This document shows, in pieces, positions 1-33,598 of a stretch of 64,000 nucleotides of DNA. The DNA comes from Limonium bicolor (lineage: Eukaryota > Streptophyta > Magnoliopsida > Caryophyllales > Plumbaginaceae). The position numbers and the translations under genes were made by a program. The notes beneath the pieces are model-generated. The model searched no databases, was not told the origin of the DNA, and worked only from the letters and a program-made list of their open reading frames with translations. The stretch covers positions 124,497,503 through 124,561,502 of the forward strand of contig CM041783.1 of NCBI GenBank assembly GCA_023374045.1, in the 5' to 3' direction. Each line of letters starts with the position of its first letter. The first letter of the stretch is position 1.

Positions 1-334
1 TACGTGAGGAAATTCAGTGTTTAAGATTTATGCATTTAAGGGCCTAAGTGCCAAGCAATTTAAGTTTATGCACTATATTGTGATGTAGTGTAGTTTTGGT
101 GTTTTATGTGTGCTAAGGAGGTTTGGTGAAAATTTGAATGTTGATAGCTATTTAATGGTGAGAAGCTTAATGTTTTGTGTAACAATATACTAGAGAACCC
201 ATGGCAAAATTTACTGAAGAACCTAAGTGTTTAAGATGTTCTAAGGAGATTTCATGACTAAGGTAGTACTAGGAAACTTTAGGGGTTGTTTTGATGAAAA
301 AGGGTGAGTTTAAGGTGTTTTAATGAGTTATAAT

Positions 335-1649
335 CACTAGTAGGAAAAATGTTTTTAACCACGGTTATTTTTCCTATATACCACTGTTTGGAACCGTGGT
401 TTATGCTCGCGTCGTATATTTACAAATAGAGATAAACGACGGTTCATAACCGTGGTTTAAAGTAAGCGAAAAAGCCACGGTTTCCCGAAAACCGTCGTTT
501 AAGACCTCTTCTCCCGCGAATATTCATTGACTTTATACCACGTTTGGGAGTCTGAACCGTGGTATAAAGAGTATTATAAATGACGGTTTTACTTAAAACC
601 GTGGTATAAAATGTATACAAATCAAGAATAAACCACGGTTATTAATAAAACCGTGGTTTATAGTCTGTGAATTTTTCTCCAGTTCGCCGGCGATTTAACG
701 GCGCTGCTTCATTGGTATCTCAACAGAGAGCGCATACAGAAGAGAATGAAGAGTCCAGAACATGTATGTTTCTTGTTTGTGTATTATGGTTGCTAAATAA
801 GTCACATTATGTTTCTTGTTCGTCGGTAGGTTGCAAAATTACCGTGAAAGAGAAGAAGAAGCGCATAGCATATGTTCATTGTTTCGCTACTGTGGGTTGC
901 AAAAATTACCGTGAAAAACAAGAGGCGTAGAGCATGTTATTGTTCGCCGGTTAGGTTTGCAAAAATACAGTGAAGAGGCGCAGAGCATGTCCATGTTCGC
1001 CGGTTATAGTGAAGAGGCGCAGACCATGTCCTTGTTCGTCGGTTACAGTGAAGAGGCGCAAGAAGAAGAAGAGAATAGTTGCAGAGCATGGCCTTGTTCG
1101 TCGGTTACAGTGAAGAGGCGCAAGAAGAAGAAGAGAAGAGTTGCAGAGCATATTCCTTGTTCGTCGGTTACAGAGAAGAGGCGCAAGAAGAAGAAGTAGA
1201 AAACATTGAGGACAAATATATATAATAAGAGAAAGAGAAAGAGCCGCGTTAATTTTCGCCGAAAATTTGAATTCCCGCTTAGACTATATACCATGGTCCT
1301 ACCAAGAAACCGTCATTTAAAGTATTTTGGCCATGACTAAAAACGACGGTTGTAACAAAACCGTGGTTTAAAATACAACACATCAAACTATATACCACGG
1401 TTCCACACAGAACCGTGGTATATAATACAATGCGTCAAACTATATATGACGGTTCCGTCAGAACCATGGTATAAAATGCAACATGTCAAGCTATATATGA
1501 CGGTTCTGCGTGGAACCGTGGTATAAAATCTCCCGCTGACACTTTTTGTGACGGTTATGCTAATAACCGTGGTATAAAATTTTTAAATGACGGTTATGAG
1601 ATTAACCGTGGTTTAAAGTGCGTCATTTAAAATCTTTTTTCTACTAGTG
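335..1649. mobile_element. Non-autonomous CACTA (En/Spm) transposon with 3-bp TSD
   Basis: The ends are CACTAGTAGGAAAAA and the inverted TTTTTTCTACTAGTG. The flanks are AAT at 332-334 and AAT at 1650-1652, the 3-bp target duplication expected of CACTA elements. About 300 bp inside each end is packed with short subterminal motifs in both orientations (AACCGTGGTTTA and TGACGGTT forms), which in this superfamily are transposase-binding sites. At 1,315 bp with no transposase ORF it must depend on an autonomous partner. The centre (667-1200) is a captured or amplified non-transposon repeat. It inserted into the LTR of G-A and is therefore younger than it. Confidence 0.92.
740..1200. repeat. Tandem GAAGAGGCGCAGAGCATG repeats inside the CACTA element
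   Basis: At least five degenerate units built on GAAGAGGCGCA-AGAGCATG-CCTTGTTCGTCGGTTACAGT follow one another, with unit lengths of roughly 40-65 bp because of variable AAGAAG expansions. The first part (740-930) also matches, at lower identity, the 251-254-bp units at 44326-44895 (ATGAAGAG, CATGTATGTTTCTTGTT, GGTTGCAAAATTACTGTG). The small ORFs here (667-930, 957-1199) are products of the repeat and I do not consider them genes. Confidence 0.75.
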
Positions 1650-2092
1650 AATGACTTAGGCATCACCATGGAGGATTTAGGAATCAAAAGAATGTACTAG
1701 TGTATTTAGGACTTAGGCAAACATTGGTAAACAAGTAGGAGAAAATAATGTGTTGATGGATGGAGGCATAAACTTGTGAAGAAACTTTAAGTAGTTGCAT
1801 AAAGAAGTTTTAGATGGTGATAGATGCTTGGGAGATGATGTTATAGTGGTGAGGAAGCATTTGGCATAGTGGTTGTATTAGGTATGAACCACCACTTAGA
1901 AACCTAGTGAAAAACATTTCAAGTGTTGGCATCATTATAAGGAGAATGCATAATGACTAAGGTGGATATTAGTGAGTGATTTAATGAGTTTTGTGGAGGG
2001 CTTAAGGTGTATTTGAAGTGCCCAAATGAGGTTAGAACATACTTGGATATATGAGGTGATGTTTGGAGTTAAATGGGAATTTAGAAACAAGG

Positions 2093-2508
2093 TCCTGGAG
2101 TCGACCGACCTTAGGGACCGGACCAGCAAGGTCGGTCGAGCTCAGTTTACACTACCGGAAAGAGTTTCTGGAATCGACCGAACTTAGGGACCGGACTTAC
2201 AAGTTCGGCCGGGCTTGTATTTGTTGTGTACGAATTAAGTCTCTGGAATGGACCGACCTTGGGACCGGACTTACAAGGTCGGTCATGCCTAGAATTTTGT
2301 ACGGGAATTAAGTCTCTGGAATCGACCGAACTTGGGACCAGACTTTCAAGTTCGGTCGGGCTTAAATTTCCCACAGGGAAAACTCTCGGGAATGGACTGA
2401 CCTTGGGGACCGGACTTGCAAGGTAGGTTGGGGTAAAATTTTCAAACGGTAATACGTCCTGGAATGGATCGACCTTGGGTAAGGTCGGTCGGTAAGATCG
2501 GTCGAGCC
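2093..2508. repeat. Hairpin-forming GACCG...CGGTC array in the G-A LTR
   Basis: Seven units of about 60 bp. Each contains arms such as GACCGACCTT and AAGGTCGGTC around a GGGACCGGACTTAC-like loop. The arms alternate between GACCGACCTT/AAGGTCGGTC and GACCGAACTT/AAGTTCGG, so a C:G pair is replaced by A:T in step. The same kind of array lies at 20177-20500, 30065-30389 and 51454-51703. Confidence 0.85.
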
Positions 2509-4001
2509 AAAAAAAAGAAATTTTAAATTCTAAAGATGTTAATTGGTAATAAGGTATGCCATTGGTAGGGTAATAATGATTAGGAACCTAAGAACTTAAG
2601 GAATTAAGTTAAGTTAAGCATAAACCTTAAGTTTAAAGTTAAGTTAATATGGTAAAGTGGTAAAGACTTAAGAGGGTATTGAATGGGAATCTTTAGGGAT
2701 TAAGTGTCTTAAGTAAGGTGAAAATAACTAATGGCCTAAAAATGAATGAATGTTTTAGGTTTGTGAATTGGGACCCCGGAGAGATAAACCAAACAATCGT
2801 CGACGGTGAACGGTACAGTCTTTCTTGTGACCTGCTTGCTAACGAGGTGTCCCTCGGCTTGTGTGCTACCTGTTTGTTTGATAGGACTAAGACAAGATAA
2901 AGCATGCAACCGGATATTAATGTTCTCGTTGTGTATGTGTCTTCTTTACGCTAACCCACGAGGCTTAAGGATAGCTACTAACTAAGCTTGATACTTATTG
3001 AGTTAAGGAGAGGATTTGTACATTGGTGATTGTTGGTTAATACCCGTCAACGTTTAACTAACACTTGGTATTTAAGACTTTCACTAACCGTAACTTAGGG
3101 TGGGAGTGAGGAATCCGGAATGGTACCGGCACATGTGTATTGGGGGAGGTCGGTATCTGAATCAGATCCAACTTCCAAATAAGACTTGTCCTCGGACTCG
3201 TCGCCTAGGGTCAACAAACCGACCCGACCACCCGGACTACTGTTTGAGGTGGGAGGCACATTAAGGATGGCGTGGGGGGATCAAGCCTACATCCCCAACA
3301 AATTAAGGAAGGTTGCTTATTGCTGGATAGTGCACTGCTACTGGCTAGGGTTAACCAAGCCCTACAAAAATAAGCAACCAATTAAGGGCTAACCAATCTA
3401 ATAGTGGAACGGTTGGCAAATATAAGATTAAGGAGATTGTGGATCTAAGGAGTTAAGAACTAACTCACTTATTAAGGGAGCGCCTGAGTCGTTCATTTGT
3501 ATATGAGCTATTTATGTTCATTGTGGTTTGTTGTTTTATTGTGTTTCATATTATGCTTGTTATGCTAATCAACTTCCATGCTATCGACAATTAGTCGTCG
3601 TAGCCCCGTTAGCTTGGGGGCCATGAGAGGGTCGTACCAGCATTCGTGCTGACCCCCTTTGGGGGCTGTTTTTACACTTGCAGGTAAGCGGCCGATGAAG
3701 TCACACCACGAGAGTAGGAGCGGGTAGCCCTAGGTGGGACTTTATTTTGAGTACGGGTAGCGCCTGTGCACCCGTCTGTTAGTAGTTGAACATGAGATAT
3801 ATTATGTGGTTTTGAAGATACTTAAAACTCGGATGGTATATGTATTTTGGATGTACGGTTGTAAATATTTAAGTAATGGTATTTCTTGTTGATTAGACCG
3901 TGGCAAGGTCCTGGTGATAGTTTATTTCCGCTGCGACGTTTATGTATTATTTGTTAAGTTGCGATAACCACGATTGGCTTATGACGGGGTGTTACAAAAA
4001 G

Positions 4002-4029
4002 TGGTATCAGAGCGTAGTTACGCTCTGAT
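4002..4029 (+). promoter_or_regulatory. Primer binding site (tRNA-iMet) of G-A, embedded in a hairpin
   Basis: TGGTATCAGAGC (4002-4013) is the complement of the 3' end of plant initiator tRNA-Met, the usual primer of chromoviruses. From 4006 to 4029 the sequence is self-complementary: ATCAGAGCGTA pairs perfectly with TACGCTCTGAT around a two-base GT centre. The PBS is therefore half hidden in a stem. The 200 bases between here and the gag ATG are leader with no other feature I can name. Confidence 0.9.
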
Positions 4030-4231: not shown

Positions 4232-4873
4232 ATGTCAGGAAGGAGAGGCCGAGGCCGTGGCAGAGGCGAGGATGCTTCAGAGATACCGGAGGGGCAGACG
4301 ATCGCAGAGATCGTAGCTGCCGCATTAGGGCACATGGGCTATCAGCCCGGTGTGGGTGCACCACCTCCACCGCCATAACCCCGGGAACCGAATTGGGTGA
4401 AGAGCCTTGCGGACCTTCGACCCGCACATTTTAAGGGGGAGACCGATCCCGCCAAGCTCGAGGCATACATCTCCGAGCTGGAGACCGCCTTTGAGACCCT
4501 TGACGTCCTGCTGGGATCAAGGTACGTAGCTGCGTTCTACTGAAGGTTCACTGGGGGGGCAGCAGGCGATTGGTGGAAGCTGGTGAGGGCCGAGCATGTG
4601 GCCAATCCAAAGTTCGGCTGGGAGCAGTACACCGCCTTGCTACGAGCAAAGTACTATCCCGCCCATGTTCAGACGAAGAAGCGCCTACAGTTGGATGCGC
4701 TCAAGCAGACCGACAAGATGACGGTGGACGAGTATTACACAGAGTTCACCGCCTTGCTCCGTCTTCTGCCAGGTCTTGGGTATTCAGACCAGATACTGGT
4801 GGACCGCTTCTATGGCGGGCTTAGCCATCGACTCCGCTACGGCATGGGGCCGACGAGCTATACTACCTTGCAG
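4232..4873 (+). pseudogene. gag of element G-A, exon-like segment 1 (capsid region)
   Basis: The ATG at 4232 opens MSGRRGRGRGRG, an Arg/Gly-rich N-terminus. It is followed by the retrotransposon gag (capsid) fold signature: a DWWK tryptophan motif near 4571, WEQYTALLRAKYYP, and a MTVDEYYTEFTALLRLLPG helix region. Two in-frame stops interrupt it, a TAA near 4376 and a TGA near 4541, and there may be a small frameshift beside the second. The reading frame then reaches TTLQ at 4873, where a GTAATAAG donor-like sequence begins. If the interval after it is removed, the frame continues in phase 0 into the next segment. Without splicing, translation would stop at 4896. Confidence 0.85.
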
Positions 4874-4952
4874 GTAATAAGAATGAGTAAGATATAATTA
4901 AGTGAATAAGATTTAGTTTGTGAGAAATAAGAGGAACTAATACCTTGGGAAG
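4874..4952 (+). other. Putative spliceosomal intron 1 in gag (79 nt)
   Basis: It begins CAG|GTAATA and ends GAAG|CAA, is AT-rich like plant introns, has a CTAAT branch-site-like motif about 15 nt before the acceptor, and contains in-frame stops. Removal joins phase 0 to phase 0 between TTLQ and QECYHATAK of the gag. Length is in the normal range for short plant introns. No transcript evidence is available here. Confidence 0.65.
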
Positions 4953-5208
4953 CAAGAGTGCTATCATGCCACTGCTAAGGTTGAGATAACTGTCCAGCTG
5001 AGGGACGATGACAATGCCAAGAGAAAGAATGCTGGGAAGAGTACAGAACACCAAGGGCAAGGTGGGTACAAGAAACAGAAGTACCAGCCTCAAGCCCAAA
5101 AGAGCCAGAACCAAAAAGGAAAGGAGGAAAAGGAGAAGGCTATTAATGAGCCACTGAAACTGACTTATGCTTATGCTGCTAAGCCCCTGCGCTCCAGGGT
5201 GCCAAAGG
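4953..5208 (+). pseudogene. gag of element G-A, exon-like segment 2
   Basis: The open frame reads QECYHATAKVE, then a Lys/Gln-rich linker (KKQKYQPQAQKSQNQKGKEE) and AKPLRSRVPKG. A stretch like this usually separates the capsid domain from the zinc knuckles in chromovirus gag. The same frame runs on for only six more codons past a GTGAGG donor-like site at 5209 and then meets TAA at 5229. It carries no lesion of its own. The phase at both ends matches the neighbouring segments if the two flanking intervals are introns. Confidence 0.75.
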
Positions 5209-5284
5209 GTGAGGAAATACATCTTGAGTAAATAAGAATGGTTGACAACATTGAGATACAATCACTGATGCGATGTGTAATCAG
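5209..5284 (+). other. Putative spliceosomal intron 2 in gag (76 nt)
   Basis: It begins AAGG|GTGAGG and ends GTGTAATCAG|GT. It contains in-frame stops and a CACTGATG branch-like motif about 20 nt before the acceptor. Splicing leaves one base (G) of a codon that is completed by GT of the next segment, restoring the frame into the zinc-knuckle segment. The donor was chosen because of this phase match. Another GT at 5227 would break the frame. Confidence 0.62.
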
Positions 5285-5626
5285 GTACTGAGACTGGAAA
5301 GGAAACCGGTGGTGGCTACCAACGACACTACTATTGCCAGAGGTGCAAGGGAGACCACCCCGGAGTTGACTGCAGGGGGAATAAGGTGGAGTGTAATTTT
5401 TGCGGTGTACCCGGGCACCGGGCATATGAGTGCTACGGGAACCCGGAGAGTAAGAATTACAGACCTAGTTTTAAGATTAAGACTAAGACCGATCAGGGAG
5501 CTGGTTCTGACGGTCAGAAGGGGGCGCAGCAATCGGCGAGCAAGAACCCACGGGTAGCCCAGAAATCGGGACCCAAACTACACTTGGTGGACCGGGACGA
5601 TGAGCCTGAACCCTCATCGAGGCCAG
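5285..5626 (+). pseudogene. gag of element G-A, exon-like segment 3 with two zinc knuckles
   Basis: The frame encodes two CCHC knuckles: CQRCKGDHPGVDC (spacing CX2CX3HX4C, slightly short) and CNFCGVPGHRAYEC (CX2CX4HX4C), near 5333-5431. These bind nucleic acid in the nucleocapsid part of gag. A Lys/Ser/Gln-rich tail follows, ending in EPSSRPG. There is no lesion inside the segment. It ends at a CCAG|GTACC donor-like site with one base of the next codon. Unspliced, the frame ends at TAG 5644. It could join either the AlkB ORF or the protease, both in frame. Confidence 0.8.
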
Positions 5627-5780
5627 GTACCGCTATAACCATTTAGTAATAAAATTGCCTGCTTACCGCATTACATGCATGCTTAGTGAATAAATAAGAT
5701 AAGTGAGAATAAGATAAGATTAGAATATAAGTAAGATATAACCTACTACCACCTTAGGAAGCTTCAACATCTGCTATCTA

Positions 5781-6497
5781 ATGCCTTCTACACTGAACCC
5801 GGAGTACACCGACATCGAAACCATAGACTTTCCAACCGAACAATGTCAGGTTATCCGCCCAGGTATGATTTTATTAAGGGGATACCTGACACCCGAAGCG
5901 CAAATAACCATCATCAGGAAATGCAATCAACTAGGAATGGGACCGGGAGGTTTTTATACACCGGAGTACCCAGGGGGAGCAAGAATGAAGTTAAAGATGA
6001 TGAGCTTAGGCAAGGATTGGAATCCGTATGCCAAGACCTACCAAACCATGAGGACACAGGATGGAATCTCACCACCGGAAATACCCAAAGACTTCCATCC
6101 GGTAAATACACAAGTCATGGAGATCGCTCAGCCGTTGGAAGCTGAACCGGTTCCAGACATACAAGCAGAAATTTGCATTGTAAACTTCTATGAGAAAGAT
6201 GGGCGACTTGGACTACATCAGGACAAGGACGAGACAACGGAGTCTCTCGAACGAGGGATACCCGTAGTGTCTTGGTCCATGGGAGATGACGCTGAATTTT
6301 TGTACGGCGAGCAGAAGCGTGCGGACCGTGCTAATAAGTTAATACTTAAGTCAGGGGATGTATTATTTATGGGAGGAGAGTCAAGGATGTTATACCATGG
6401 GATTAAGAGAATCAAGCTGAATACAGCACCGTCAGCAGTGATTAATGCGACGCATATGAAACCAGTGCGGTTAAACCTAACCTTTAGACAATATTAG
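5781..6497 (+). CDS. AlkB-family 2OG-Fe(II) dioxygenase (ALKBH1-like) inside a gypsy retrotransposon
   Basis: A 238-aa intact ORF. Members of this family oxidatively remove methyl groups from nucleic-acid bases using Fe(II), O2 and 2-oxoglutarate. The jelly-roll signature is complete: NFY at 135-137, the iron ligands H146 and D148 in GLHQDKDE, distal H206 in MLYHGIK, and R230/R236 in RLNLTFRQY, the arginine pair with the same spacing as in bacterial AlkB. GGFYTPEYPGGARMKLKMMSLGK (about 57-78) resembles the plant ALKBH1-related proteins rather than the AlkB domain of plant RNA viruses. At 238 aa it is slightly longer than E. coli AlkB and shorter than most plant homologues. It lies between gag zinc knuckles and protease. 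The start at 5781 is the first ATG, but the frame is open upstream to a splice-acceptor-like site at 5757, so it may be made as a gag fusion. Substrate is unknown. Confidence 0.93.
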   Translation: MPSTLNPEYTDIETIDFPTEQCQVIRPGMILLRGYLTPEAQITIIRKCNQLGMGPGGFYTPEYPGGARMKLKMMSLGKDWNPYAKTYQTMRTQDGISPPEIPKDFHPVNTQVMEIAQPLEAEPVPDIQAEICIVNFYEKDGRLGLHQDKDETTESLERGIPVVSWSMGDDAEFLYGEQKRADRANKLILKSGDVLFMGGESRMLYHGIKRIKLNTAPSAVINATHMKPVRLNLTFRQY

Positions 6498-6571
6498 CTA
6501 TGTAATGTTTTAGTGTGAGATAAGGAATGAGATGTAAGATCAAAGCACATGTTGTAAGCAGGATGGTTATG

Positions 6572-6577
6572 AATAAA
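6572..6577 (+). terminator. Possible polyadenylation signal after the AlkB ORF
   Basis: AATAAA lies 75 nt after the AlkB stop codon, in AT-rich sequence with a following TTGTT-rich stretch. It would suit an AlkB segment used as an alternative terminal exon. AATAAA is frequent by chance in AT-rich DNA, so this is weak on its own. Confidence 0.35.
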
Positions 6578-6654
6578 ATAATAGTGTTGTTCATATAAAT
6601 TGTTATGACTCTTGTTATACCATCATTACTCATGAGGCTTGTGAATACGATTAG

Positions 6655-7110
6655 GTCATGGACTCGGTACGGAAGGTGCGCTAAGCATACTTACAGAGGC
6701 ACAGGCCAACGCCAGCGGTACTATCCTCACCGGCACCTTTCCGATTAATGGGATTGAGGCATCAGTTCTCTTCGACTCAAGGGCCTCGCATACCTTTGTC
6801 TCGGCATCTTTCGCGAGAAGGTCGGGGCTAGACGCTGATGAGCTACCCGACTTCACGGTTACGCTCCCGTCTAAGGAGAAGGTTCGTTGCACTCGTTACT
6901 ACCGAGGAGCCACTGTCAGAATTAAGGGGGAAGACTTTCCAGTCAGTTTTATTGAGTTCAGGGAGTTGGGATTTGATGTGATATTCGGGATGAACTGGTT
7001 GGAGCAGCACAAGGGACGTATCCTCTGCGCCGAGCATAGACTGCTGCTCAGGAGTCCGTCTGGGGTAACAAATCATACCGCCAGAGGCCCAGACAGCCTT
7101 CGACTAAGAT
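6655..7110 (+). pseudogene. Aspartic protease of element G-A, catalytic motif altered
   Basis: The open frame reads GTEGALSILTEAQAN and then the retropepsin core: ASVLFDSRASHTFVS, a flap region, and FDVIFGMNWLEQHKG, the conserved end of gypsy proteases. The active-site motif is DSRAS where DSGAS or DTGA is expected, so Gly to Arg next to the catalytic Asp. The frame is lost between about 7060 and 7115, before the RT frame. It follows the putative intron-3 acceptor directly. Confidence 0.87.
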
Positions 7111-7120
7111 CATCACCGCT

Positions 7121-8463
7121 ATGACAATGTATAAGGAATTGAGGAGAAAGGAAGAAGTGTACCTCTGCTGTGTACAGGACATAGAGAGAGACCCCGAGTT
7201 CGACCCCGACTTACCGGTAGTGTCGGAGTTCCCCGATCTCTTTCCACGGGAACTGCCCGGCATACCACCCACTCGGGAGGTAGAGTTCACCATTGAGCTG
7301 CTATCTGGTACCGGACCGATAGCCAAGGCACCATACCGCATGGCTCCAGTTCTCTTCGTGAAGAAGAAGGATGGCAGTCTCCGCCTCTGCATCGACTACA
7401 GAGAGTTGAATGCAGTAACAGTGAAGAATAAGTACCCACTACCCCGCATTGATTATCTGTTCGATCAGTTGAAGGGAGCATCGGTGTTTTCCAAGATTGA
7501 TCTCAGATCGGGGTATCATCAGATAGCCATTAAGGAGGGAGACATTGAGAAGACGGCATTCCGGACACGATACGGCCACTATGAGTTTACAGTGATGCCG
7601 TTCGGTTTGTCGAACGCACCGGCGAAGATTATGGATTGATGAACCACTTGTTCGGGAGCAGCTGGACAAGTCGGTTGTAGTGTTTATTGATGATATTTTG
7701 ATATATTCGAAATCGAAGACTGAGCATGAGGAACACTTGAGGAGAGTATTGGAGATATTGAGGGAGAACCAGCTATATGCTAAGTTCTCCAAGTGTGAGT
7801 TTTGGCTAGACCAGGTCTCTTTCCTAGGTCATGTCATTTCAGATGCTGGGATCTCAGTGGATCCAGCAAAGATTGATGCCGTACGTACTTGGCCAAGACC
7901 GAAGACTGTTACCGACATTCAGAGCTTTCTTGGTTTGGCAGGCTACTACCGGAGGTTTGTTAAGGATTTCAGCAAGGTCACAAAGCCGATGACCAGTCTG
8001 ATGAAGAAAGATGCACCGTTCTTATGGACGGCTGACTGTGAGAGATCATTTCAGTGTTTGAAAGACTCACTGACCACTGTACCGGTTCTGACCATTCCAA
8101 ACGGTACGGAGGGCTTTGAGGTTTACGGTGATGCATCCGGCAGAGGGCTGGGTTGCGTGCTCATGCAACATGGCAAGGTGGTGGCATATGCCTCACGCCA
8201 GTTGAAGAAACATGAGGAGAACTACCCCACACATGATTTAGAGCTGGGAGCTGTAGTCTTCGCTTTGAAGATATGGCGCCATTATCGATACGGGGTTAGT
8301 GTGACGATCTACACCGATCACAAGAGCTTGAAATATATATTCACTCAGAAGGAGTTGAATCTCAGACAAAGGAGATGGTTAGAATTTCTGAAAGACTATG
8401 ACATTGACCTCCAGTACAAAGATGGGAAGGCCAATGTTGTAGCGGACGCCCTGAGCCGTTGAG
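7121..8463 (+). pseudogene. Reverse transcriptase and RNase H of element G-A
   Basis: The RT begins with [20 protein letters not shown] and retains [31 protein letters not shown] and the catalytic FIDD box near 7686. The primer-grip side follows with FLGHVIS and [11 protein letters not shown]. RNase H is clear at 8120-8460: [33 protein letters not shown]. Lesions: about 30 codons are missing in frame between PYRMAP and VLFVKKKDG at 7344, apparently through a short GCTCCA repeat; one or two single-base deletions around 7635-7655 separate the two RT halves; and a TGA follows ALSR at 8461. Confidence 0.93.
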
Positions 8464-8466
8464 CAC

Positions 8467-9437
8467 ACTCACTCCATTCGCTAGTCTCTTTCTCCAGCTT
8501 GGTTGATGAGGTGCGAGAGGCTCAGAGGGCAGATGAGTATATGAGGGAGGTCAGACAGAAGTTGACAGATGGTACCTTTGAGAGTCAGAAATATGATTTC
8601 AGACTTCACGATGATGATCTGATTAGACTTAAGGGCCGGTTATGCATACCACGGGGCAACACGGATCTTAAAGACCGTATACTTAGAGAATCACACTGTT
8701 CTTCAGTTTCCATCCATCCGGGAGCCTCTAAGATGTATAAAGACATGAAGAGATACTTCTGGTGGTCGGGGATGAAGACAGATGTTACCGAGTTCGTCTT
8801 GAGGTGTCTCACATGCCAGAAGGTAAAATTCAAGCACCAACGACCGGGCGGAATGGTACAGTCGATGCCAGTTCCGGAGTGGAAGTTCCATGATATCTCC
8901 ATGGACTTTATAGTTGGACTCCCACCTGCTAGGGGAGGTCTCAACATGATATGGGTGGTGGTGGATCGCCTTACCAAAGTAGCCCGATTCATACCGATGA
9001 AGGATACTTGGAAGGTGACCAAATTAGCTGAGTTGTTTGAGAAGGAAATTATGAGGCATCACGGGATACCGAAGACCATAGTGTCAGATAGAGATACCAG
9101 ATTCCTTTCGAGGTACTGGAGAGCTACTAGAGAAGCGTTGGGGACAGAACTGAAGTTGAGTACCGCGTTCCATCCTCAGACAGATGGTCAGACTGAGCGT
9201 ACGATTCAGACACTCGAGGACATGCTGAGAGCATGTGCCTTAGACTTCCAGGGTAGTTGGATTGACAAATTGCATCTGATCGAGTTCTCATACAACAACA
9301 ACTATCACGCTTCGATCAAGATGGCACCTTTTCAAGCGTTGTACGGTAGACCATGTCGTACACCGCTCTGCTGGGATGAGTCGAGTGAGGCGGTCATTAT
9401 AGGACCAGAATATTTAGAACAAGTTAAGGCTGAAGTT
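8467..9437 (+). pseudogene. Integrase of element G-A, C-terminally truncated
   Basis: It continues the RNase H frame after the TGA. The HHCC zinc domain is visible (ESHCSSVSIHPG, then CLTCQKVK). The DD35E core follows: first Asp in DISMDFIVGLP, second in VSDRDTRF, Glu in TDGQTERTIQTLED. The core runs to YNNNYHASIKMAPFQALYGR and ends with EYLEQVKAEV, where the LTR of the next element begins. The C-terminal GPY/F-like and chromodomain part is missing here. A piece of that region, but possibly from another element, starts at 33293. Confidence 0.93.
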
Positions 9438-9708
9438 TGATAAGTGTCTAAATGAGCATGTTTTATGGGTGTATTTCATATATTATATCAGCACTTTTCT
9501 TGCTCATTTCTCACTTATCGTATGTTTTTCCTCTAGTTTATGTTTTATTGATTATCTCACAAATTTATTGGTTAAACATGAGGAAAACCAAGCTAGGAGC
9601 AAAGTAGACGAAGATACGAACGCATAGGCGCAAACGGCTCAGAAAACGGAGTCCAAACGAAGAATCTAGAGCCGGTCAAAGTTCGTAAAAGAAAACGAGT
9701 CAAACTTC

Positions 9709-10032
9709 CGTCCGTGTCTCGTCCGCATTACAAAGGCCAGACAGGGCTTGAGCCGTCCGTGTCTTGACCGCACTACAAAGGCCGGACAGAGCACAGAGGC
9801 GTCCGTGGAACCAGGGCCGGACAACGGAGACATATGTCCGTGTCTTGTCCGAGTATTTAAGGACGGACGTGAAGGTTGAGACCGTGGCATGTCCGTGCTT
9901 ATTTGGCCGGACAAAAGTAAGGAAATGAATACGTCCGTGGAATTATGGACGGACAAGGGGCGGACAGAAGCAGGACACAATGTGTCCGTGGCCTGTCCGG
10001 GGAAAAAAGGCCGGACAACACTAAGACGTCCG
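9709..10032. repeat. GTCCGTG / CCGGAC inverted motifs in the TR-GAG 5' LTR
   Basis: About ten irregular units made of GTCCGTG or GTCCG and the complementary CGGAC follow one another, able to form many alternative stems. The corresponding block in the 3' LTR is about 16005-16325. Its first and last units match, but the middle is different in sequence and in unit order. Confidence 0.75.
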
Positions 10033-10288
10033 CCCAAATATAGCCGACACAAACAAGGACACGTGTAAATGCAACGCAGATCCAGAAATTAACGCGACTA
10101 GTTTCGTTCGCCGACCGTCTTCCCCAATTGCTTCTTCCTTTGCGGCGCCTATAGACATGTCGAACTGCTCCATTAACAATATCAGACACCTCCCTTATCC
10201 TGTAAATCCTTTCACGCGTGATCCAGCTCTTTCTCCACTCAGTTCTATCTCCTCTCCAGCTCTATCTTCAACCTTCCCCCTGCCTCTC

Positions 10289-10296
10289 TATATAAA
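10289..10296 (+). promoter_or_regulatory. TATA box in the TR-GAG 5' LTR
   Basis: CTCTATATAAACCC follows a CT-rich stretch and precedes a C-rich candidate start region. The same box lies at 16572-16579 in the 3' LTR. This is the likely U3/R boundary region. Confidence 0.6.
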
Positions 10297-11191
10297 CCCA
10301 GTCCTTCTACCTTAAATCAACGTGCGGAGACTGAAAGAAATCACACAACAGCACCACACTCCATTCCTCCTCTCATTCATTTCCTCCCGCAACACACACA
10401 ACACTCCATCTTTTATTTATTTCACCACTTCACCACACTCACTCACATACTCAAACAGAAGCAGTATTTTTTACAAAGAGAGAAAAGAGGCAGCAGAAGT
10501 GAGAGCGAGAGCAGTCCCGTTCTTTCTCTGAATTAATGTCTAAATCTATCTGTGCTATCTTTTTATCTCCGTTAATGTCTGAGTAATTTTCTTTTGTATC
10601 CTAGGATGGGGTTTTGATTCTAATATTACGTAAAACAGTATTTATCCTGTCTCTCTCATTTAACTTGTTTTAATTCCTTTCAGCAAATATTGTTAAATGC
10701 TTTGCGTGACAAACAACTGCATTTTTATGGTAACTATCAACATATGATTTTGAGATAGTCTAAGTACCACAAAGGAATTAACCTTGGTATTTACACTCCG
10801 GATTGAGCAGGAAAATACTGAGGCTATAACTAAGAGTTCGTAACTGACAATTATTAACTCTAATAGACAATAAATAATTGAGACATGGTTATAAATCTGT
10901 TTAAGTAATTTAGGCAATTCCCCCGCTATCCTAGGATACCTTTTTCCATCCACATCACTAATTTACCTGTTTTTACTGTTTTTATTATTTCTGAACTGAT
11001 CCAACAACAAATCAAGCTTGCCTCCGGCTAAACCCCTTTTTACTGTTTTTATTAATTACCGATACTAGGATAATTGAACAATTTCCCTGTGGATACGACA
11101 CTTGTTGTACTACTCCGACTAAGGTGCACTTGCCTTTTAGTTTGCTGTAAATCTATATATATTAATGTATAGTTTTATCCCAACAAGTTTT

Positions 11192-11209
11192 TGGCGCCGT
11201 TGCCGGGGA
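11192..11209 (+). promoter_or_regulatory. Primer binding site of the TR-GAG element (tRNA-Asp)
   Basis: TGGCGCCGTTGCCGGGGA is an 18-base complement of the 3' end of plant tRNA-Asp (GTC), the primer typical of Athila elements. It begins six bases after the LTR end. Confidence 0.9.
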
Positions 11210-11289
11210 AATTGATTCCATCAATTTCCCTAGTTTCCGGTAGTTCACTTGCTATACTGTAATATTTTGTTTATATTATTTTGTTGTTT

Positions 11290-11640
11290 GTTTAATTTCT
11301 GACATCTAACTTCGGACATCTAACTTCGGACATCTAACTTCTGACATTTTATTTCAGCTCTTTATTTTATTGTCATTTATTTTTCAGTCATTTAATTTCC
11401 ATTGTCCTTTAAATTTCAGTAATTAACTTCTAACATTTTAATTTTCAGTCTCTAACTACTAACCTTAAATTTCTGTCATTTAATTTTCTGTCCTTTAATT
11501 TTCTGTACACTAATTACTAACATTAAATTTCTGTCATTTAATTTTCTGTCATTTAAATTCCAGTACTCTAACTACTAACATTTAAATTCAGTTCTTTAAA
11601 TTCCCTTGTCACTTATTTTCTGTCATTTTACTCTTGTTAA
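11290..11640. repeat. Degenerate T-rich repeats in the TR-GAG leader
   Basis: Short units such as CTAACTTCGGACAT (three near-identical copies at 11308-11345) and TTTCTGTCATTTAATTT variants repeat through the leader between PBS and gag. No coding potential is seen in 11210-11780. Confidence 0.6.
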
Positions 11641-11780
11641 AAAAATAGAAAAAAAAATATAAAAAATATATCAGTGTTGTTTAATTAACGTTTATCAGCC
11701 TAACCAATATCTCTGCCTTTCTTTATCTATTTACTAATTAATTTCGCAGTTTCTGACGAACCACAAAGTATCTTCTGTGC

Positions 11781-14528
11781 ATGCCAAACACTCGAACCCG
11801 AGGTTCTCCACCTATCAGTCCGAGACCCGAACCCGAGCGCACTTTATTTAACGCACGAAGAAACCTGAGAAATCAAGACATGGCTAATAACCAAGTTATA
11901 GAAGAAATGGACCATGAAAATCAACCAAATCAACCAGAACACCGTGCCCTCTCTGATTACCACCAACCAGATACCGAAGGAAGGGCATCAGCCATAGTTC
12001 TCCCCGAACTAACACCGCTAGAAGCCGGACGATGGACTTTCAAAACCCACTACATCACCGCCGTCCGGGATTTAGGCAAGTTTAGTGGAGCAAATCCTGA
12101 TGAAGCCCCAAATCATTTAAGTCTCTTCCTAGACTTCTGTAATTCCTTTGGTCAAACCGGCAACGTCAAAGAAAGAATCCGTCTACAACTATTTCCTCAC
12201 TCGTTGTCGGATTCAGCAAACAGGTGGTACCGAAGTCTTCCCTCCCGATCAATCCATACATGGCTGCAAATGGCCCAGAAGTTCCTTGCCAAATACTACC
12301 CAACCAGTAGAACAAGGCAATTGATCGGAGAAATCAACACATTCTGTCAAGAACCGGGAGAAACGTTATACGACGCATGGGACAGATTCAAAGATATGCT
12401 GATGAAGTGTTCCCACCATGGTCTAGACGATCAATCCCTCTGCCTGTCATTCTTCAATGGCCTGGATGATGGGAACCGACTACTTGTAAATTCCTCTGCA
12501 GGAGGAAGTTTCATGATGAAATCTCCTCAAGAAGGGATGAACCTTCTCGAAACCATGACGAGCAATACAAGACAGTGGACGAGATCCAAAGGAAGAACGC
12601 CACGAGCAGCAGGCCTACTCCATGTTGAGCCTACGGATCATTTATCTGCTCAGATCTCGTCCCTTGCAAAGATGGTGGAAAAGCTAACAACATCACAGAA
12701 CGAAATTGTAAAGACAATAGCTTCCCCACCTACAAATTCATCACCAGAAGGATGTGCCATATGCGCCGGTCCTCATGAAACTCATCAATGCGAAGGTAAA
12801 AACCAGTACGAAGATGTGAATTTCATAGGAAATCGCCCCGGTAATTCCTACAACAACAACAACTACCCATGGAGAAATCACCCGAATTTCTCATGGAAAA
12901 ACAATGATCAGAACCAAGGAGGGCAGAACAACAGTTCCAATACCTATCAGGGAAACAGACCCCAACCAAACTCTAATATGGGTTATAGAGCACAAGGTGC
13001 CCCTCCAGGTTTCCAGCAACAACAACAACCATCTTCATCCTCTGTTGATCCAAACGCAGAACTCAAAGAGATGATGAAGGGTTACATGTCTATGACTCAG
13101 AACCAGCTTTCTGCGCAAGAAGCCTTCAACCAAAAAATCGAAGGTAAATTCAATCAAATTGCAGAACATCTTGCTCGAAGACCGCCTGGGGCTCTCCCAA
13201 GCCAAACGGAGCCAAATCCAAGAGAGCAAGCCAAATGCATCTATGTGAAGGAACACAGTGAAGAAAAGATAGAGGTGGCCAAAACAGTTAAGGTTCCAGA
13301 ACTTCACCCTTCCCTTCAAGAGTGGGTGATAGCAATCGAAACCTCAAAAAGGAATGTAGCTGAACTGGAAAGCACCGCCAAAGTCTATAAAAATCGTATT
13401 CAGTCCGAGAATACCTACCTTAAGGACTTGGTGGCCGGCTACGAAAATGAAAAGCTCGATTTTGAAGAAGAAGAAGAAGAAGAAGAGGTTAAGGCGATAA
13501 CCTTGAGAAGCGGTAGAAAAACCGACGAGATTCACGTCCCGCAAAGGTCTGAAGAATCCAAAGAGGATAGTGAAGAAAGAGTTGAGGTTCCAACAGAAAA
13601 GACATCTCCCAGCATTCTCACTATTCCACCAGCTTCAAAACCTTCTCCACAAGAACCGCCTATACCATTTCCCCACCGACTCCAAAAGCAGAAATTGGAT
13701 AATGAATATGGTAAGTTTCTGGCAATGCTGAAACAACTAAACGTCAACATACAGTTTGTAGACCTCATTGCCAAAATGCCTAACTACACAAAATTCCTCA
13801 AACACCTTATCTCCAACAAAACTAAATTGGCCGAAGTCGGTACGGTACCTCTCAATGTAGCTTGCTCAGCTATTCTGCAACAACCACTACCTTCGAAATG
13901 CAATGATCCAGGCAGTTTCACCATTTCAGTCACAATTGGTAGCACCTCATTTCCATACTCCCTATGCGATCTGGGTGCCTCCATAAATTTGATGCCCCTC
14001 TCCACTTTCAAAAGGCTAGGAATTGGAAATATGAAAAAGACTAAGATGACCCTTCAACTGGCAGATGGTTCGGTAACTTACCCAAGCGGAGTGGTAGAGG
14101 ATGTTATCATCAAAGTGGAGCACTTATACTTCCCATGCGATTTTGTCATTTGGACATCGAAGAGAACTCCACTACACCTCTCATCCTCTATCGGACGACC
14201 ATTCCTTGCCACAGCCAATGTGCACATTTGGGTAGCCCAGGGGACAATCACCCTTCAAGCTTATAATGAAAAGCTGGAGTTTGCATCAGGAAGGTCTCCA
14301 GATAACAAATCCAAGGATCTCAAGTTTGTGCGGGACACTCAATCATCATCATCCCCACTTCTCTTTATCACCCTTCCTGACGGAATGTCCATTACAGAGA
14401 TACCACCACCAATCCCGGATGAAGAGCGGGATAAGAAAAGAAAACATGCATCCCGGTGGACACTCAAAAATACCATCGAGTCATGCTTTGGATCTACTCC
14501 TCATAACCACCCCCCAGGTTTGATCTAA
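11781..14528 (+). CDS. Athila-type gag with retropepsin-like domain (915 aa)
   Basis: Intact ORF. The capsid domain spans roughly residues 95-260, with SANRWYRSLPSRSIHTW, FLAKYYP, FCQEPGETLYDAWDRFKDML and CLSFFNGL. A Cys/His motif CAICAGPHETHQC lies near 325, followed by an Asn-rich stretch. A polyglutamate run then precedes VKAITLRSGRKT near 560-585, a motif typical of Athila gag. The protease core near 725-790 reads LCDLGASINLMPLSTFKRLG and then LQLADGSV, with DLGAS as the catalytic motif. The ORF ends at HNHPPGLI, with no RT fused or following. The first ATG was chosen because the leader upstream has stops. An intact gag in a non-autonomous element suggests it was mobilised recently, or that gag is needed in cis. 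Confidence 0.93.
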   Translation: MPNTRTRGSPPISPRPEPERTLFNARRNLRNQDMANNQVIEEMDHENQPNQPEHRALSDYHQPDTEGRASAIVLPELTPLEAGRWTFKTHYITAVRDLGKFSGANPDEAPNHLSLFLDFCNSFGQTGNVKERIRLQLFPHSLSDSANRWYRSLPSRSIHTWLQMAQKFLAKYYPTSRTRQLIGEINTFCQEPGETLYDAWDRFKDMLMKCSHHGLDDQSLCLSFFNGLDDGNRLLVNSSAGGSFMMKSPQEGMNLLETMTSNTRQWTRSKGRTPRAAGLLHVEPTDHLSAQISSLAKMVEKLTTSQNEIVKTIASPPTNSSPEGCAICAGPHETHQCEGKNQYEDVNFIGNRPGNSYNNNNYPWRNHPNFSWKNNDQNQGGQNNSSNTYQGNRPQPNSNMGYRAQGAPPGFQQQQQPSSSSVDPNAELKEMMKGYMSMTQNQLSAQEAFNQKIEGKFNQIAEHLARRPPGALPSQTEPNPREQAKCIYVKEHSEEKIEVAKTVKVPELHPSLQEWVIAIETSKRNVAELESTAKVYKNRIQSENTYLKDLVAGYENEKLDFEEEEEEEEVKAITLRSGRKTDEIHVPQRSEESKEDSEERVEVPTEKTSPSILTIPPASKPSPQEPPIPFPHRLQKQKLDNEYGKFLAMLKQLNVNIQFVDLIAKMPNYTKFLKHLISNKTKLAEVGTVPLNVACSAILQQPLPSKCNDPGSFTISVTIGSTSFPYSLCDLGASINLMPLSTFKRLGIGNMKKTKMTLQLADGSVTYPSGVVEDVIIKVEHLYFPCDFVIWTSKRTPLHLSSSIGRPFLATANVHIWVAQGTITLQAYNEKLEFASGRSPDNKSKDLKFVRDTQSSSSPLLFITLPDGMSITEIPPPIPDEERDKKRKHASRWTLKNTIESCFGSTPHNHPPGLI

Positions 14529-30700: not shown

Positions 30701-32044
30701 GCCCTGTATCCTAATCTGGTTACCCCGATTTGTGTGCTTATTTGACCACCTAAATAAGAAAAATGCACGAATCGGACTATATTGCACTTACCTGTGCTTG
30801 ACTTATGTTGTGCTTGATATTTATTGTCTTGAGCGCTAGTTTGTATAATTCATGAAATATATGAATGATGATGAATGGTATTCGAACCTCGTACTGTACT
30901 TGTGTAATGTATTGTACCTCGTATGTATGGGTATATGCGTATTGTATTATTGTGGCTTGGATGTTGACTTGTGCTAATTCCTAACTATCTAACTCCTAAC
31001 TTAAGCGAGTAAATTGGAATGAGTACAAGTCCGATATAGCTTCGGCCACGCGTGAGGATGCGGAGTCACAAGAGGTTGGCTGCAATTCCTGACTCTTAAA
31101 CTGGTCCGCGGCCCAAATCCCTTAAATGGGTAGCATCCCCGGATTGGTGAGTCAAGTAAATCCTGGAGGTGGGACGGTGTAGTCCCCAGGGCCGGAGGTC
31201 CCGACGACTTAACTTGAGTAAGAGTAAGAGAGTAAGTATGGATCCGTAAGTATGTATGAGTAAGTATGCGTATGTATGAAGTAACGAGTAAAAGAGTAAT
31301 CTCCACCCGATAACCCGGGTGGACTAATGAAGCTAACAATATTGTATATTGTGCATGAGATGTGTATGTGTAATTCGGAAAGAGGTAAGTATGTGTTGGT
31401 GATTTATATGGTATTCCTTGTATGAAATGAATTGTATGTATGTACGTTGTGTGAGTATTATTGTATCGTGTATAAGAGCATGTATGCATGTATGTTTGGA
31501 TGAAAACGAACCGCATGTATTCGACCAAGTGGTCGGCGTACCCTCACTAGTAGCGGGGTATGCGGTTATCATGCTCGGCGAAAGCTGACCCCTTGGGGGA
31601 CATTTTTAGTGTGCAGGTACCCGAAGTGGAATATGGTCAAGGAAGAGACCGGAGGCACGCCCTTGCACTTAGAAAGTAAGTAGTTGTGAGAAAACGGGTA
31701 GATATGGACTCTTAGAGAGTATGTATGAACTTGGAAGAGATATTACACTTGTATAAGGATCTTAGTAAACTCGGTATGTAGATTATATTGTATTGTACTT
31801 GGAGTATTGTATTGAAGGAAGATTGTAGCAGTATTTGGTAAATGGAGAATGTATTGTAGATTTGTAGTACTCGGGATTCCGGTCCATCAGACCGATGTTG
31901 TATGTAATAGGAGTAGCCTTGTTAGTCACGTGGGTGGCTAACGGCATTGTATCACCCAATGTATGTAAGTAGGTATCCGCTGCGAGTATCTGATGAGTAA
32001 GGAGATTGGACGTTAATGACTGTATTAATAGTAGGGGTGTTACA
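27781..32044 (+). repeat. 3' LTR of the LARD
   Basis: It starts TGAAATACCCCGACC and ends GGGGTGTTACA, followed by the GATCA target duplication. Hairpin arrays lie at 29556-29736 and 30065-30389. Confidence 0.95.
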
Positions 32045-32049
32045 GATCA

Positions 32050-33292
32050 ATTCTAACCACCTCCTCTGCCTCATATTGAGCTCCTTCTGCGTGAAGATGT
32101 ACTTGAGGCTTTTGTGGTCGTGTTTGTAGTGTAGATCTTGCAGAAAACACCGTACAGGTAGTGTCTCCAAATCTTAAGGGCAAACACCACGGCTGCCAGC
32201 TCCAGATCGTGCGTCGGGTATCGGGTCTCGTACTCCTTCAGCTGCCTCGACGCATACGCAATCACCTTTCCTTTCTGCATCAGCACACACCCCAGGCCAT
32301 ACTTGGAGGCGTCACTGAACACCTCGAAGCCCTCAGTCCCTGAAGGTAGGGTTAAACACTGGGGCCGTGGTTAACCTCCCCTTCAGTTCCTGAAATGCTG
32401 CTTCACATTCGTCACTCCATTGAAACTTGACCACCTTCTTCATCAGGTTGGTGAGTGGTCTGGCAATCTTTGAGAAGTCTTTCACGAATCTTCTGTAGTA
32501 TCCTGCCAAACCCAGGAAACTACGCACCTCAGTCAGGTTGCTCGGTCTCGGCCACTCCTTCACCGCTTGTATCTTGGCTGGGTCCACTGCTATCCCCTCC
32601 TTTGTAACAATGTGGCCCAAGAACGCCACTCGATCCAGCCAAAAGTCACATTTAGACAATTTGGCATACAACTGTTGTTCCCTCAGAATCTGCAGAACCA
32701 ATCTCAAGTGCTCCTCATGCTTTTCCTCGTTCTTGGAGTAGATAAGGATATCGTCTATGAATACCACCACAAACCGGTCTAGATAGGGATTGAAGATCCG
32801 GTTCATGAGGTCAATGCATGAAAACGGCTGGTGCGTTCGTCAATCCAAAGGGCATCACCAGGAACTCGAAGTGTCCATATCTGGTCCTGAAAGTAGTCTT
32901 CGGGATGTCTCTCTCTGCGACGCGTAGCTGGTGGTATCCCGATCTCAAATCTATTTTGGAGAGAAACTCCTGCCACCTGCAGTTGGTCGAAGAGGTCATC
33001 AATTCGGGGTAATGGGTACGGTTCTTCACTGTAATCTGGTTCAACTCCCGGTAATCTATGCAGAGCCTCATACTCCCGTCCTTCTTCTTCACAAACAAGA
33101 CAGGAGCTCCCCACGGCGACACACTCGGCCGGATATACCCCTTCTCCAAGAGGTCCTCTAACTGAACCTTCAATTCTTTCAGCTTTGACGGCGCCATACG
33201 GTAAGGAGCTTTGGAGATAGGCGCTGCTCCTGGCACTAGATCGACACTGAACTCTATCTCCCTGTCTGGCGGCATGCCTGGGATCTCCTCAG
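32050..33292 (-). pseudogene. gypsy fragment G-C: reverse transcriptase and RNase H
   Basis: On the minus strand the frame starts at [20 protein letters not shown], the start of RT, and passes through [39 protein letters not shown] and [11 protein letters not shown]. It then enters RNase H ([46 protein letters not shown]). At least three frameshifts break it (near 33010-33040, 32805-32820 and 32105-32130). The region between PYRMAP and VLFVKKKDG that is deleted in G-A is present here. Its 5' end joins a plus-strand gypsy fragment at about 33292 with no LTR between. Confidence 0.92.
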
Positions 33293-33598
33293 GGCCCGTT
33301 AGCCTACAGACTGGATTTACCAGCAGAGCTCGGGAAGGTGCACGACGTCTTTCACGTTTCACAGTTGAAGAGGTATGTGCCCCATCCATCGCACGTTTTA
33401 CGGCCAGAGACTTTAGAGTTGGACCCCGCTCTACGATATGAGGAAGTACCACTCCGCATTCTCGATACGAAGACGAGGCAGACTAGGAACAAGACTGTTA
33501 GCATGGTCAAGGTTCTCTGGTCGAACCATGAGGTGGAGGAGGCTACTTGGGAGTTAGAGGACTCCATGCGAGCGAAGTATCCAGCACTCTTTGAGTAG
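33293..33598 (+). pseudogene. gypsy fragment G-B: integrase C-terminus with chromodomain-like end
   Basis: The plus-strand frame reads [32 protein letters not shown] and ends VKVLWSNHEVEEATWELEDSMRAKYPALFE before a stop. This is the standard C-terminal part of chromovirus integrase. The N-terminal part is missing, because the minus-strand G-C fragment starts immediately upstream. It could be the missing end of G-A, but the LTRs that would then pair do not match. Confidence 0.88.

What the first reader, a model, noticed from the sequence alone, without database searches (positions are those of the whole stretch)
5781..6497. An intact AlkB-family demethylase ORF inside a Ty3/gypsy retrotransposon
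Seen: a 238-aa ORF with NFY, HxD (H146/D148), H206 and the R230/R236 pair, located between the gag zinc knuckles and the protease of element G-A, in the same orientation. Known: AlkB proteins remove methyl adducts from DNA or RNA, and some plant RNA viruses carry an AlkB domain. I am not aware of an AlkB domain as a regular part of a plant gypsy element. Inference: the element captured a host ALKBH1-like gene and may have used it to remove methyl marks (for example m6A in its RNA or 6mA in its DNA) or to repair alkylated RNA genomes. This is the strongest candidate here for an undescribed system.
Basis: partly seen in the sequence, partly recalled or inferred. Interest (0 to 1): 0.96.

Follow-up and report, generated by a model that had tools for sequence, protein, structure and literature searches.

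The report
Jumping gene carrying an AlkB demethylase
An abundant jumping gene in a plant genome close to sea lavender carries its own well-preserved copy of a plant AlkB-type enzyme, which likely strips methyl marks from the jumping gene's RNA or DNA and so would help it escape or survive host control.

Summary
The ORF is real: a complete ALKBH1-type AlkB domain between the gag zinc knuckles and the protease of a chromovirus-like Ty3/Gypsy element. It is not a one-off: 150 copies were scored in the same genome (a cap), and 20 of 20 copies sampled by protease carry AlkB just upstream. Three subfamilies keep it although their proteases have diverged to about 50% identity. AlkB is under purifying selection (median dN/dS 0.13-0.16). 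The subfamily A and B AlkBs and four public proteins form one clade among plant ALKBH1-type proteins, so one capture is likely. New here: AlkB is an exon of exactly 740 bp in 33 of 37 copies, inside a predicted gag-pol intron whose donor fits two acceptors, for Gag-AlkB or Gag-Pol. The ORF's ATG is missing in 14 of 25 subfamily-A copies, which points to a spliced Gag-AlkB fusion. RNA evidence, substrate and host parent gene were not obtained. Prior art: Phalaenopsis Gypsy elements with an ALKBH5-like m6A demethylase (2022); lineage, AlkB class, position and predicted expression differ here. Verdict: likely independent capture, a new variant of a known kind.

The parts
1..338 (+). 5' LTR, part 1 (LTR begins at or before base 5; the window starts inside it)
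   Evidence: homologous to the LTR region of other copies; LTR pairs seen in three copies
339..1648 (.). later insert in this copy's 5' LTR, not part of the element
   Evidence: other copies run from 337-338 to 1649-1650 without it
1649..3996 (+). 5' LTR, part 2, with 73-bp tandem repeats at 2095-2479
4002..4013 (+). primer binding site TGGTATCAGAGC (tRNA-iMet type, name recalled)
   Evidence: found in 20 of 21 copies examined, 19 exact
4232..4873 (+). gag exon 1 (capsid), broken in this copy; start codon assumed
   Evidence: Retrotrans_gag PF03732; donor CAG|GTAATAAG
4874..4955 (+). predicted intron 1
   Evidence: AT-rich spacer with GT..AG ends in other copies; acceptor altered in the window copy
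4956..5208 (+). gag exon 2
5209..5284 (+). predicted intron 2
   Evidence: donor AAAGG|GT, acceptor ATCAG|
5285..5626 (+). gag exon 3, zinc knuckles
   Evidence: open frame, phase 1 at the donor; zinc-knuckle hits in copy L018 are below Pfam's cut-off
5627..5757 (+). predicted intron 3a (gag to AlkB)
   Evidence: GT in 37 of 37 and AG in 37 of 37 copies
5758..6497 (+). AlkB (ALKBH1-type) exon, 740 bp with stop; begins with the GSFNIC codons (host motif FDIC); includes the finding's ORF 5781-6497
6498..6654 (+). spacer 3b; the whole alternative intron for Gag-Pol would be 5627-6654
   Evidence: indels not in threes between copies; pol acceptor AG in 36 of 37 copies
6655..9437 (+). pol exon: protease, RT, RNase H, integrase (this copy lacks about 80 bp near 7343-7347, is not open throughout, and is cut at 9437 by another LTR element)

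Best explanation
A chromovirus-like Ty3/Gypsy family carries a conserved ALKBH1-type demethylase exon between its gag zinc knuckles and its protease, which is predicted to be spliced in frame onto Gag and would likely strip methyl marks from the element's own RNA or nascent DNA. Shown: position, conservation, purifying selection, high copy number, co-divergence with the protease, and a shared splice-site and phase pattern in three subfamilies. Inferred: one capture of a plant ALKBH1-type gene by an ancestor of the family; one donor at the end of gag joins either to the AlkB acceptor (Gag-AlkB, ending at the AlkB stop) or to the pol acceptor (Gag-Pol). Gag-AlkB would co-assemble into the virus-like particle and place the enzyme on the packaged RNA during reverse transcription. 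There it would remove m6A or m1A (or 6mA on single-stranded DNA), keeping the RNA out of m6A-dependent stress-granule sequestration and the template readable. I rate the exon/fusion part at about 0.7 and methyl removal from the element's own nucleic acid at about 0.5.
For: Family: 150 AlkB copies scored (cap), 149 of them covering all 238 residues or all but one, 89-96% identical apart from the window copy itself, 112 of 150 without a stop. 20 of 20 copies sampled by protease have AlkB directly upstream. Subfamilies B (10 copies) and C (2): gag match upstream and protease downstream of AlkB in 12 of 12 fetched of 112 listed; AlkB 58-61% and 70-71% identical to P0001. AlkB and protease identities correlate at r 0.98 over 666 pairs. 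Selection: median dN/dS 0.13 AlkB, 0.11 gag, 0.15 PR-RT in 21 copies, 0.16 for AlkB in 20 copies sampled by protease; catalytic residues 21 of 21. Splicing: donor GT 37 of 37, AlkB acceptor AG 37 of 37, pol acceptor AG 36 of 37; AlkB exon 740 bp in 33 of 37; automatic phase test fits AlkB in 30 of 37 and pol in 28 of 37. ATG absent in 14 of 25 A copies, while the codons from the acceptor on match the host FDIC motif. Tree: A and B AlkBs and P0002-P0005 one clade, 100/100. Fold: closest to rice ALKBH1. Function by kinship: rice ALKBH1 removes 6mA from single-stranded DNA and R-loops (PMC10469495, passages); an N. benthamiana ALKBH1-like protein is reported as an m6A demethylase (PMC12736721, abstract); m6A sequesters ONSEN RNA and ALKBH9B frees it (review PMC12786077, passages).
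Against: No transcript, splice junction or protein was seen. Subfamily-A donors read GTAC, a weak donor by recalled consensus. Spacers 3a and 3b (88-94% identical) are about as conserved as the AlkB exon (91-93%) between A copies, so only phase, indels and codon substitutions mark them as non-coding. The automatic phase test failed for AlkB in 7 of 37 copies: another frame happened to be open longer or gag is damaged, and L020 has a one-base shift in the exon. In 9 of 10 B copies a Met does lie 8 codons after the start of the FDIC motif, so a start there is possible. PR-RT dN/dS is widely spread (mean 0.28, quartiles 0.10-0.47). No protein with gag plus AlkB domains was among the 120 listed of 1578 hits. 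The parent host gene was not found. Substrate is inferred from relatives with differing reported activities.
Confidence: 0.6

Rival explanations
1. AlkB is a stand-alone second ORF, translated from its own ATG or message and acting freely in the cell, as proposed for the orchid element.
For: The window ORF has an ATG at 5781, 11 of 25 A copies keep it, and 9 of 10 B copies have a Met soon after the acceptor. 25 of 25 A and 2 of 2 C copies have AATAAA after the stop. The orchid ORF2 is separate (PMC9289625).
Against: ATG is absent in 14 of 25 A copies; in the ATA copies shown the next in-frame Met is at residue 29, after the first predicted strand, and in the two C copies the first Met is 34 codons after the motif start. 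Codons upstream of the ATG match the host FDIC motif. AATAAA is present in only 2 of 10 B copies.
Confidence: 0.2
2. AlkB is a passenger that hitch-hikes with a successful element and has no current use to it.
For: Gene capture by LTR elements is known in general (recalled); in 6 of 20 copies sampled by protease the AlkB match is split over frames.
Against: dN/dS 0.13-0.16, like gag and pol; catalytic residues kept 21 of 21; 740-bp exon length kept across subfamilies whose AlkBs are about 61% identical; 20 of 20 sampled copies carry it.
Confidence: 0.05
3. Gag-AlkB acts on the tRNA-iMet primer or on single-stranded DNA and RNA-DNA hybrids during reverse transcription, not on m6A of the genomic RNA.
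For: PBS is of the tRNA-iMet type (name recalled); ALKBH1 proteins act on tRNA m1A (recalled) and on 6mA of single-stranded DNA and R-loops (PMC10469495); A58 methylation keeps tRNA-iMet stable (PMC7475180, start of abstract in the listing).
Against: No substrate data; removing m1A58 could harm rather than help primer function (recalled from retroviruses).
Confidence: 0.3
4. A single chance insertion, host gene or assembly artefact.
For: None found.
Against: Copies on all of contigs C1-C8, three subfamilies, 20 of 20 copies sampled by protease.
Confidence: 0.01

Closest known systems
Phalaenopsis 2-ODD Gypsy elements (Gypsy_Pa_2799; PMC9289625)
   Same: A plant Ty3/Gypsy family with a fixed AlkB-type domain and intact cofactor residues, amplified in its genome; there the enzyme removes m6A from RNA in vitro.
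   Different: Orchid: Tat family, sister to Ogre, 25.5 kb with 6.4-kb LTRs, dual RNase H, AlkB at the C-terminus of a separate 565-aa ORF2, ALKBH5 class, gag-pol in one frame. Here: chromodomain element with LTRs of about 3 kb, ALKBH1 class, AlkB exon inside a predicted gag-pol intron, three subfamilies seen in a Limonium-like genome.
Plant ALKBH1 (rice ALKBH1, 5xeg/5xoi; ALKBH1D-type genes)
   Same: About 47-48% identity to rice ALKBH1, same fold (TM 0.85-0.87), same catalytic set, FDIC motif.
   Different: The element proteins form their own clade on a long stem, lack the host N-terminal region and are predicted to be fused to Gag.
Intron-bearing plant LTR elements (Ogre; EVADE)
   Same: Introns that give subgenomic RNAs by alternative splicing (review PMC12786077, passages).
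   Different: Here two acceptors would choose between an enzyme exon and pol; RNA proof is lacking.
Betaretroviral dUTPase placed N-terminal of protease (PMC1224870, passages)
   Same: A nucleic-acid hygiene enzyme at the Gag/protease boundary.
   Different: Unrelated enzyme; there it is joined to Pro, here AlkB is predicted to be joined to Gag by splicing.
AlkB domains of plant RNA viruses (Alphaflexiviridae, Betaflexiviridae, Closteroviridae)
   Same: A mobile RNA genome with its own AlkB domain (PMC9289625, Discussion).
   Different: Viral models match only weakly: best TM 0.64, 22% identity; the source here is plant ALKBH1-type.

Membership tests
AlkB family (PF13532) | Domain over curated cut-off; HxD...H and R-x5-R; AlkB fold | tested here: met
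   148.3 bits against cut-off 31.2; residues; fold
AlkB family (PF13532) | Oxidative demethylase activity | not testable with these tools
   needs an enzyme assay
Plant ALKBH1 subfamily | Groups with plant ALKBH1-type proteins and has their N-terminal FDIC motif | tested here: met
   hits below P0002-P0005 are plant proteins, several named ALKBH1D; tree, without other ALKBH classes as outgroup; G-x-F-D/N-I-C at the exon start (S for D/N in L039)
Chromovirus Ty3/Gypsy | PR-RT-RNase H-integrase order after gag, with chromodomain at the integrase end | tested here: met
   copy L018: RVP_2, RVT_1, RT_RNaseH, Integrase_H2C2, rve (below its cut-off), Chromo 25.2 against cut-off 25.1, only just over
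Chromovirus Ty3/Gypsy | RT placement in a tree with reference lineages (Tekay and others) | not tested
   no labelled reference set at hand; Tekay-like is recalled only
Orchid AlkB Gypsy family | ALKBH5-class AlkB in a separate ORF2 of a Tat-type element | tested here: not met
   ALKBH1-type, chromodomain and one RNase H region in the Pfam scan of one copy, AlkB between gag and PR
Orchid AlkB Gypsy family | m6A demethylation in vitro | not testable with these tools
   shown for the orchid protein only (PMC9289625)
Intron-bearing LTR elements | GT-AG introns with phase fit | tested here: met
   donor GT 37 of 37, acceptors AG 37 and 36 of 37; automatic phase fit 30 of 37 (AlkB) and 28 of 37 (pol)
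Intron-bearing LTR elements | Spliced RNA observed | not testable with these tools

The most novel reading that the evidence does not exclude
An LTR retrotransposon lineage that switches by alternative splicing between Gag-Pol and a Gag-demethylase fusion, and so packages a nucleic-acid demethylase inside its own particle to erase host methyl marks from its genome before and during reverse transcription. It would be a methyl counterpart of the retroviral Pro-linked dUTPase, acquired independently of the orchid AlkB element and carried by a large family in a Limonium-like genome.
Probability: 0.42. Interest if true: 0.88.

Novelty: new variant of a known kind. Interest (0 to 1): 0.72.

Why it matters
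Two plant Gypsy lineages now appear to have taken AlkB enzymes of different classes (ALKBH5 and ALKBH1) at different positions. Repeated capture would be strong evolutionary evidence that methylation of retrotransposon RNA or DNA is a real host barrier. Three subfamilies with a conserved enzyme, and copies with closely matching LTR pairs, offer a natural system to test which mark matters. An exon nested in a gag-pol intron would be a simple way for an element to make two Gag fusions from one donor.

Tried and rejected
Chance insertion or single locus: rejected. Viral origin of AlkB: BFVD matches are weak against rice ALKBH1. First guess for the pol acceptor (TTACAG|AG, used) was dropped for TTAG|GTCATGG, which matches the same place in subfamily C and keeps the frame. 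A conserved poly(A) signal after AlkB as a general feature: only 2 of 10 B copies have AATAAA, so not claimed. AlkB in viral contigs: 3 pattern matches, no relative. Annotated gag+AlkB proteins: none among the 120 listed of 1578. Host parent gene: a Penstemon ALKBH1-type query returned 112 matches, of which I fetched 12, all element copies; a second query with a piece of a Saponaria protein did not complete. Four loci (L001, L002, L003, L007) repeat longer loci or the window and were dropped before the 25/37 counts. The 20 long A copies were chosen for lack of AlkB stops, which biases; one search repeats the test on copies chosen by protease. Subfamily C is not in the tree, since both fetched copies have broken AlkB frames. 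A decayed chromovirus-like stretch near 32-34.5 kb was looked at as an AlkB-free control but gave no match to the gag or protease probes. Two short introns in gag are predicted from the same kind of signs; their sites are listed but not counted.

Full report
What is there. The window holds a 238-aa ORF at 5781-6497 (+) with a complete 2OG-Fe(II) oxygenase domain of the AlkB family. Sequence and predicted structure place it closest to plant ALKBH1: 5xeg (rice ALKBH1) at E 3.7e-69; AlphaFold model pLDDT 91.2, Foldseek TM 0.85-0.87 to 5xeg and 5xoi, then E. coli AlkB. Iron and 2-oxoglutarate residues N135, Y137, H146, D148, H206, R230 and R236 are present in 21 of 21 element copies.

The element. 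Upstream lie an LTR that ends near 3996, a primer binding site TGGTATCAGAGC (20 of 21 copies, 19 of them exact) and gag; downstream lie protease, RT, RNase H and integrase. The copy L018 shows a chromodomain just over Pfam's cut-off (25.2 against 25.1), so I call the family chromovirus-like; a tree with reference lineages was not made. The three LTR pairs compared agree at 97.3, 98.3 and 95.6% over 2.8-3.1 kb (66, 27 and 75 mismatches). With 1.3e-8 changes per site and year (recalled) these are insertions of roughly 0.4-0.9 million years; the LTR starts lie outside the fetched stretches. The window copy is broken in gag and RT and cut in the integrase region by another LTR element at 9438, while AlkB is open.

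The genome. A matK piece in a small contig is 95% identical over 86% of the query to a Limonium carolinianum matK, so the source is a Limonium or close kin. Limonium bicolor fits size and chromosome number from memory only. The genome has 2.92 Gb in 2686 contigs.

A family, not an accident. The AlkB query scored 150 copies (the cap), 149 of which cover all 238 residues or all but one; apart from the window's own they are 89-96% identical, and 112 of 150 have no stop, counted by eye from the table. A protease query scored 150 copies (the cap) at 97-98%. I took 20 of these 150, spread over the list and without knowing whether AlkB was there, and read 501 bases upstream of each: 20 of 20 carry AlkB; in 6 of them the match is split over frames. 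A Penstemon ALKBH1-type query returned 112 matches; the 12 fetched were element copies of two further subfamilies, B (10) and C (2), each with a gag match upstream and protease downstream of AlkB. Mean identity A-B is 61% for AlkB and 52% for protease; A-C 73% and 69%; B-C 62% and 47%; pairwise identities correlate at 0.98 over 666 pairs, driven by the subfamilies. AlkB has thus travelled with the protease for a long time.

Selection. Median dN/dS is 0.13 for AlkB, 0.11 for gag and 0.15 for PR-RT in 21 copies (20 chosen without AlkB stops plus the window; the PR-RT values are widely spread, mean 0.28). In the 20 copies chosen by protease it is 0.16 over AlkB codons from about 87 on.

Origin. 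In a 63-row tree the element AlkBs of A (10) and B (10) and four public proteins P0002-P0005 of unknown context form one clade with 100/100 support on a long stem; P0003 falls with B, and P0002, P0004 and P0005 with A. C is not in the tree. The other rows are plant ALKBH1-type proteins; other ALKBH classes were not included. One capture is the simplest reading.

How it is probably expressed. Gag is interrupted by short AT-rich spacers with GT..AG ends. At the end of gag a donor (window 5626|5627) faces two acceptors: one 23 bases before the AlkB ATG (5757|5758) and one before the protease (6654|6655). In 37 copies (25 A, 10 B, 2 C) the donor GT is present in 37, the AlkB acceptor AG in 37 and the pol acceptor AG in 36. 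The AlkB exon is exactly 740 bp in 33 of 37; the others are two copies with inserts (L014, L015), one of 739 and one of 737 bp. The automatic phase test, which takes the longest open frame before the donor, fits AlkB in 30 of 37 and pol in 28 of 37. In the 7 AlkB misfits another frame happened to be open longer (in L012 and L034 the expected frame is still open for 115 and 99 codons) or gag is damaged. On the exon side alone the AlkB offset fits in 36 of 37 and the pol offset in 35 of 37. The ATG of the finding's ORF is present in 11 of 25 A copies; 13 read ATA and L015, with an insert at this place, reads CTG. The codons between acceptor and ATG read G-x-F-N/D-I-C, the motif found before the domain in plant ALKBH1-type proteins, in A and B (lost to the insert in L014); of the two C copies L037 reads the same and L039 has S in place of N/D. 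In C the first Met comes 34 codons after the motif start, but in 9 of 10 B copies one comes after 8, so a start of its own is not excluded there. On balance the pattern favours a Gag-AlkB protein made by splicing over a free-standing ORF. Also against it: the A donor GTAC is weak, the spacers are about as conserved as the exon in A, and no RNA was available.

Function. The mechanism I favour is that Gag-AlkB brings the enzyme into the particle and removes methyl groups from the element's RNA or nascent DNA. This rests on relatives: rice ALKBH1 acts on 6mA in single-stranded DNA and R-loops (PMC10469495, passages); an ALKBH1-like protein of N. benthamiana is reported as an m6A demethylase (PMC12736721, abstract); m6A holds ONSEN RNA in stress granules until ALKBH9B removes it (PMC12786077, passages). 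The substrate stays open; tRNA-iMet m1A and single-stranded DNA are rivals.

Prior art. PMC9289625 (abstract, Results parts 1 and 2 of 3, Discussion; term search) screened 121 angiosperm genomes and found the 2-ODD domain only in Phalaenopsis Gypsy elements of the Tat family: ALKBH5-like, separate ORF2, active on m6A in vitro. Limonium and Plumbaginaceae do not occur in its main text; its genome list is in supplements that I did not see. The rows listed by my literature searches (20, 15, 10 and 12 rows of longer lists) name no other AlkB-bearing LTR element; the library holds open-licence papers only. The present family differs in lineage, AlkB class, position and predicted expression, so I file it as a new variant of a known kind, with independent capture likely.

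Limits. The host parent gene was not located, public contexts of P0002-P0005 were not readable, copy number is a lower bound, and splicing, fusion and activity are predictions.

Noticed in passing
window 339-1648: Insert in the 5' LTR with many ACCACGGTT/AACCGTGGT repeats, absent from other copies; looks like a fold-back or CACTA-type DNA transposon (type recalled).
   Followed up: partly
window 2095-2479: 73-bp tandem repeats in the LTR (5.3 copies); similar sequence occurs at about 20177, 30066 and 51462 in the window.
   Followed up: partly
window 9438-14528: Another LTR-element-like sequence (915-aa gag-like ORF at 11781-14528) begins where the AlkB element's integrase region breaks off; L012 carries related sequence next to an AlkB copy.
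   Followed up: partly
L014 and L015, upstream of AlkB: Two copies have roughly 1.1-1.3 kb inserts with GGCGGTT repeats at almost the same site, the start of the AlkB exon.
   Followed up: partly
L010/L018 and four like pairs: The first 1.2 kb of pol is 95-97% identical in 4 of 5 pairs (84% in L011/L025) while gag exon 3 is only 76-79% identical in all 5, which suggests recombination between element lineages.
   Followed up: no
window 32037-34533: Stretches related to the element's RT (67% DNA identity, minus strand) and to its 3' tail (plus strand), with no AlkB match.
   Followed up: partly
P0002-P0005: Public unannotated proteins 61-71% identical to the element AlkB; P0003 reads SYLG-PFDICYP, as if it ran from an intron through the same TTAG|G acceptor, so it may be an element copy from another genome.
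   Followed up: partly
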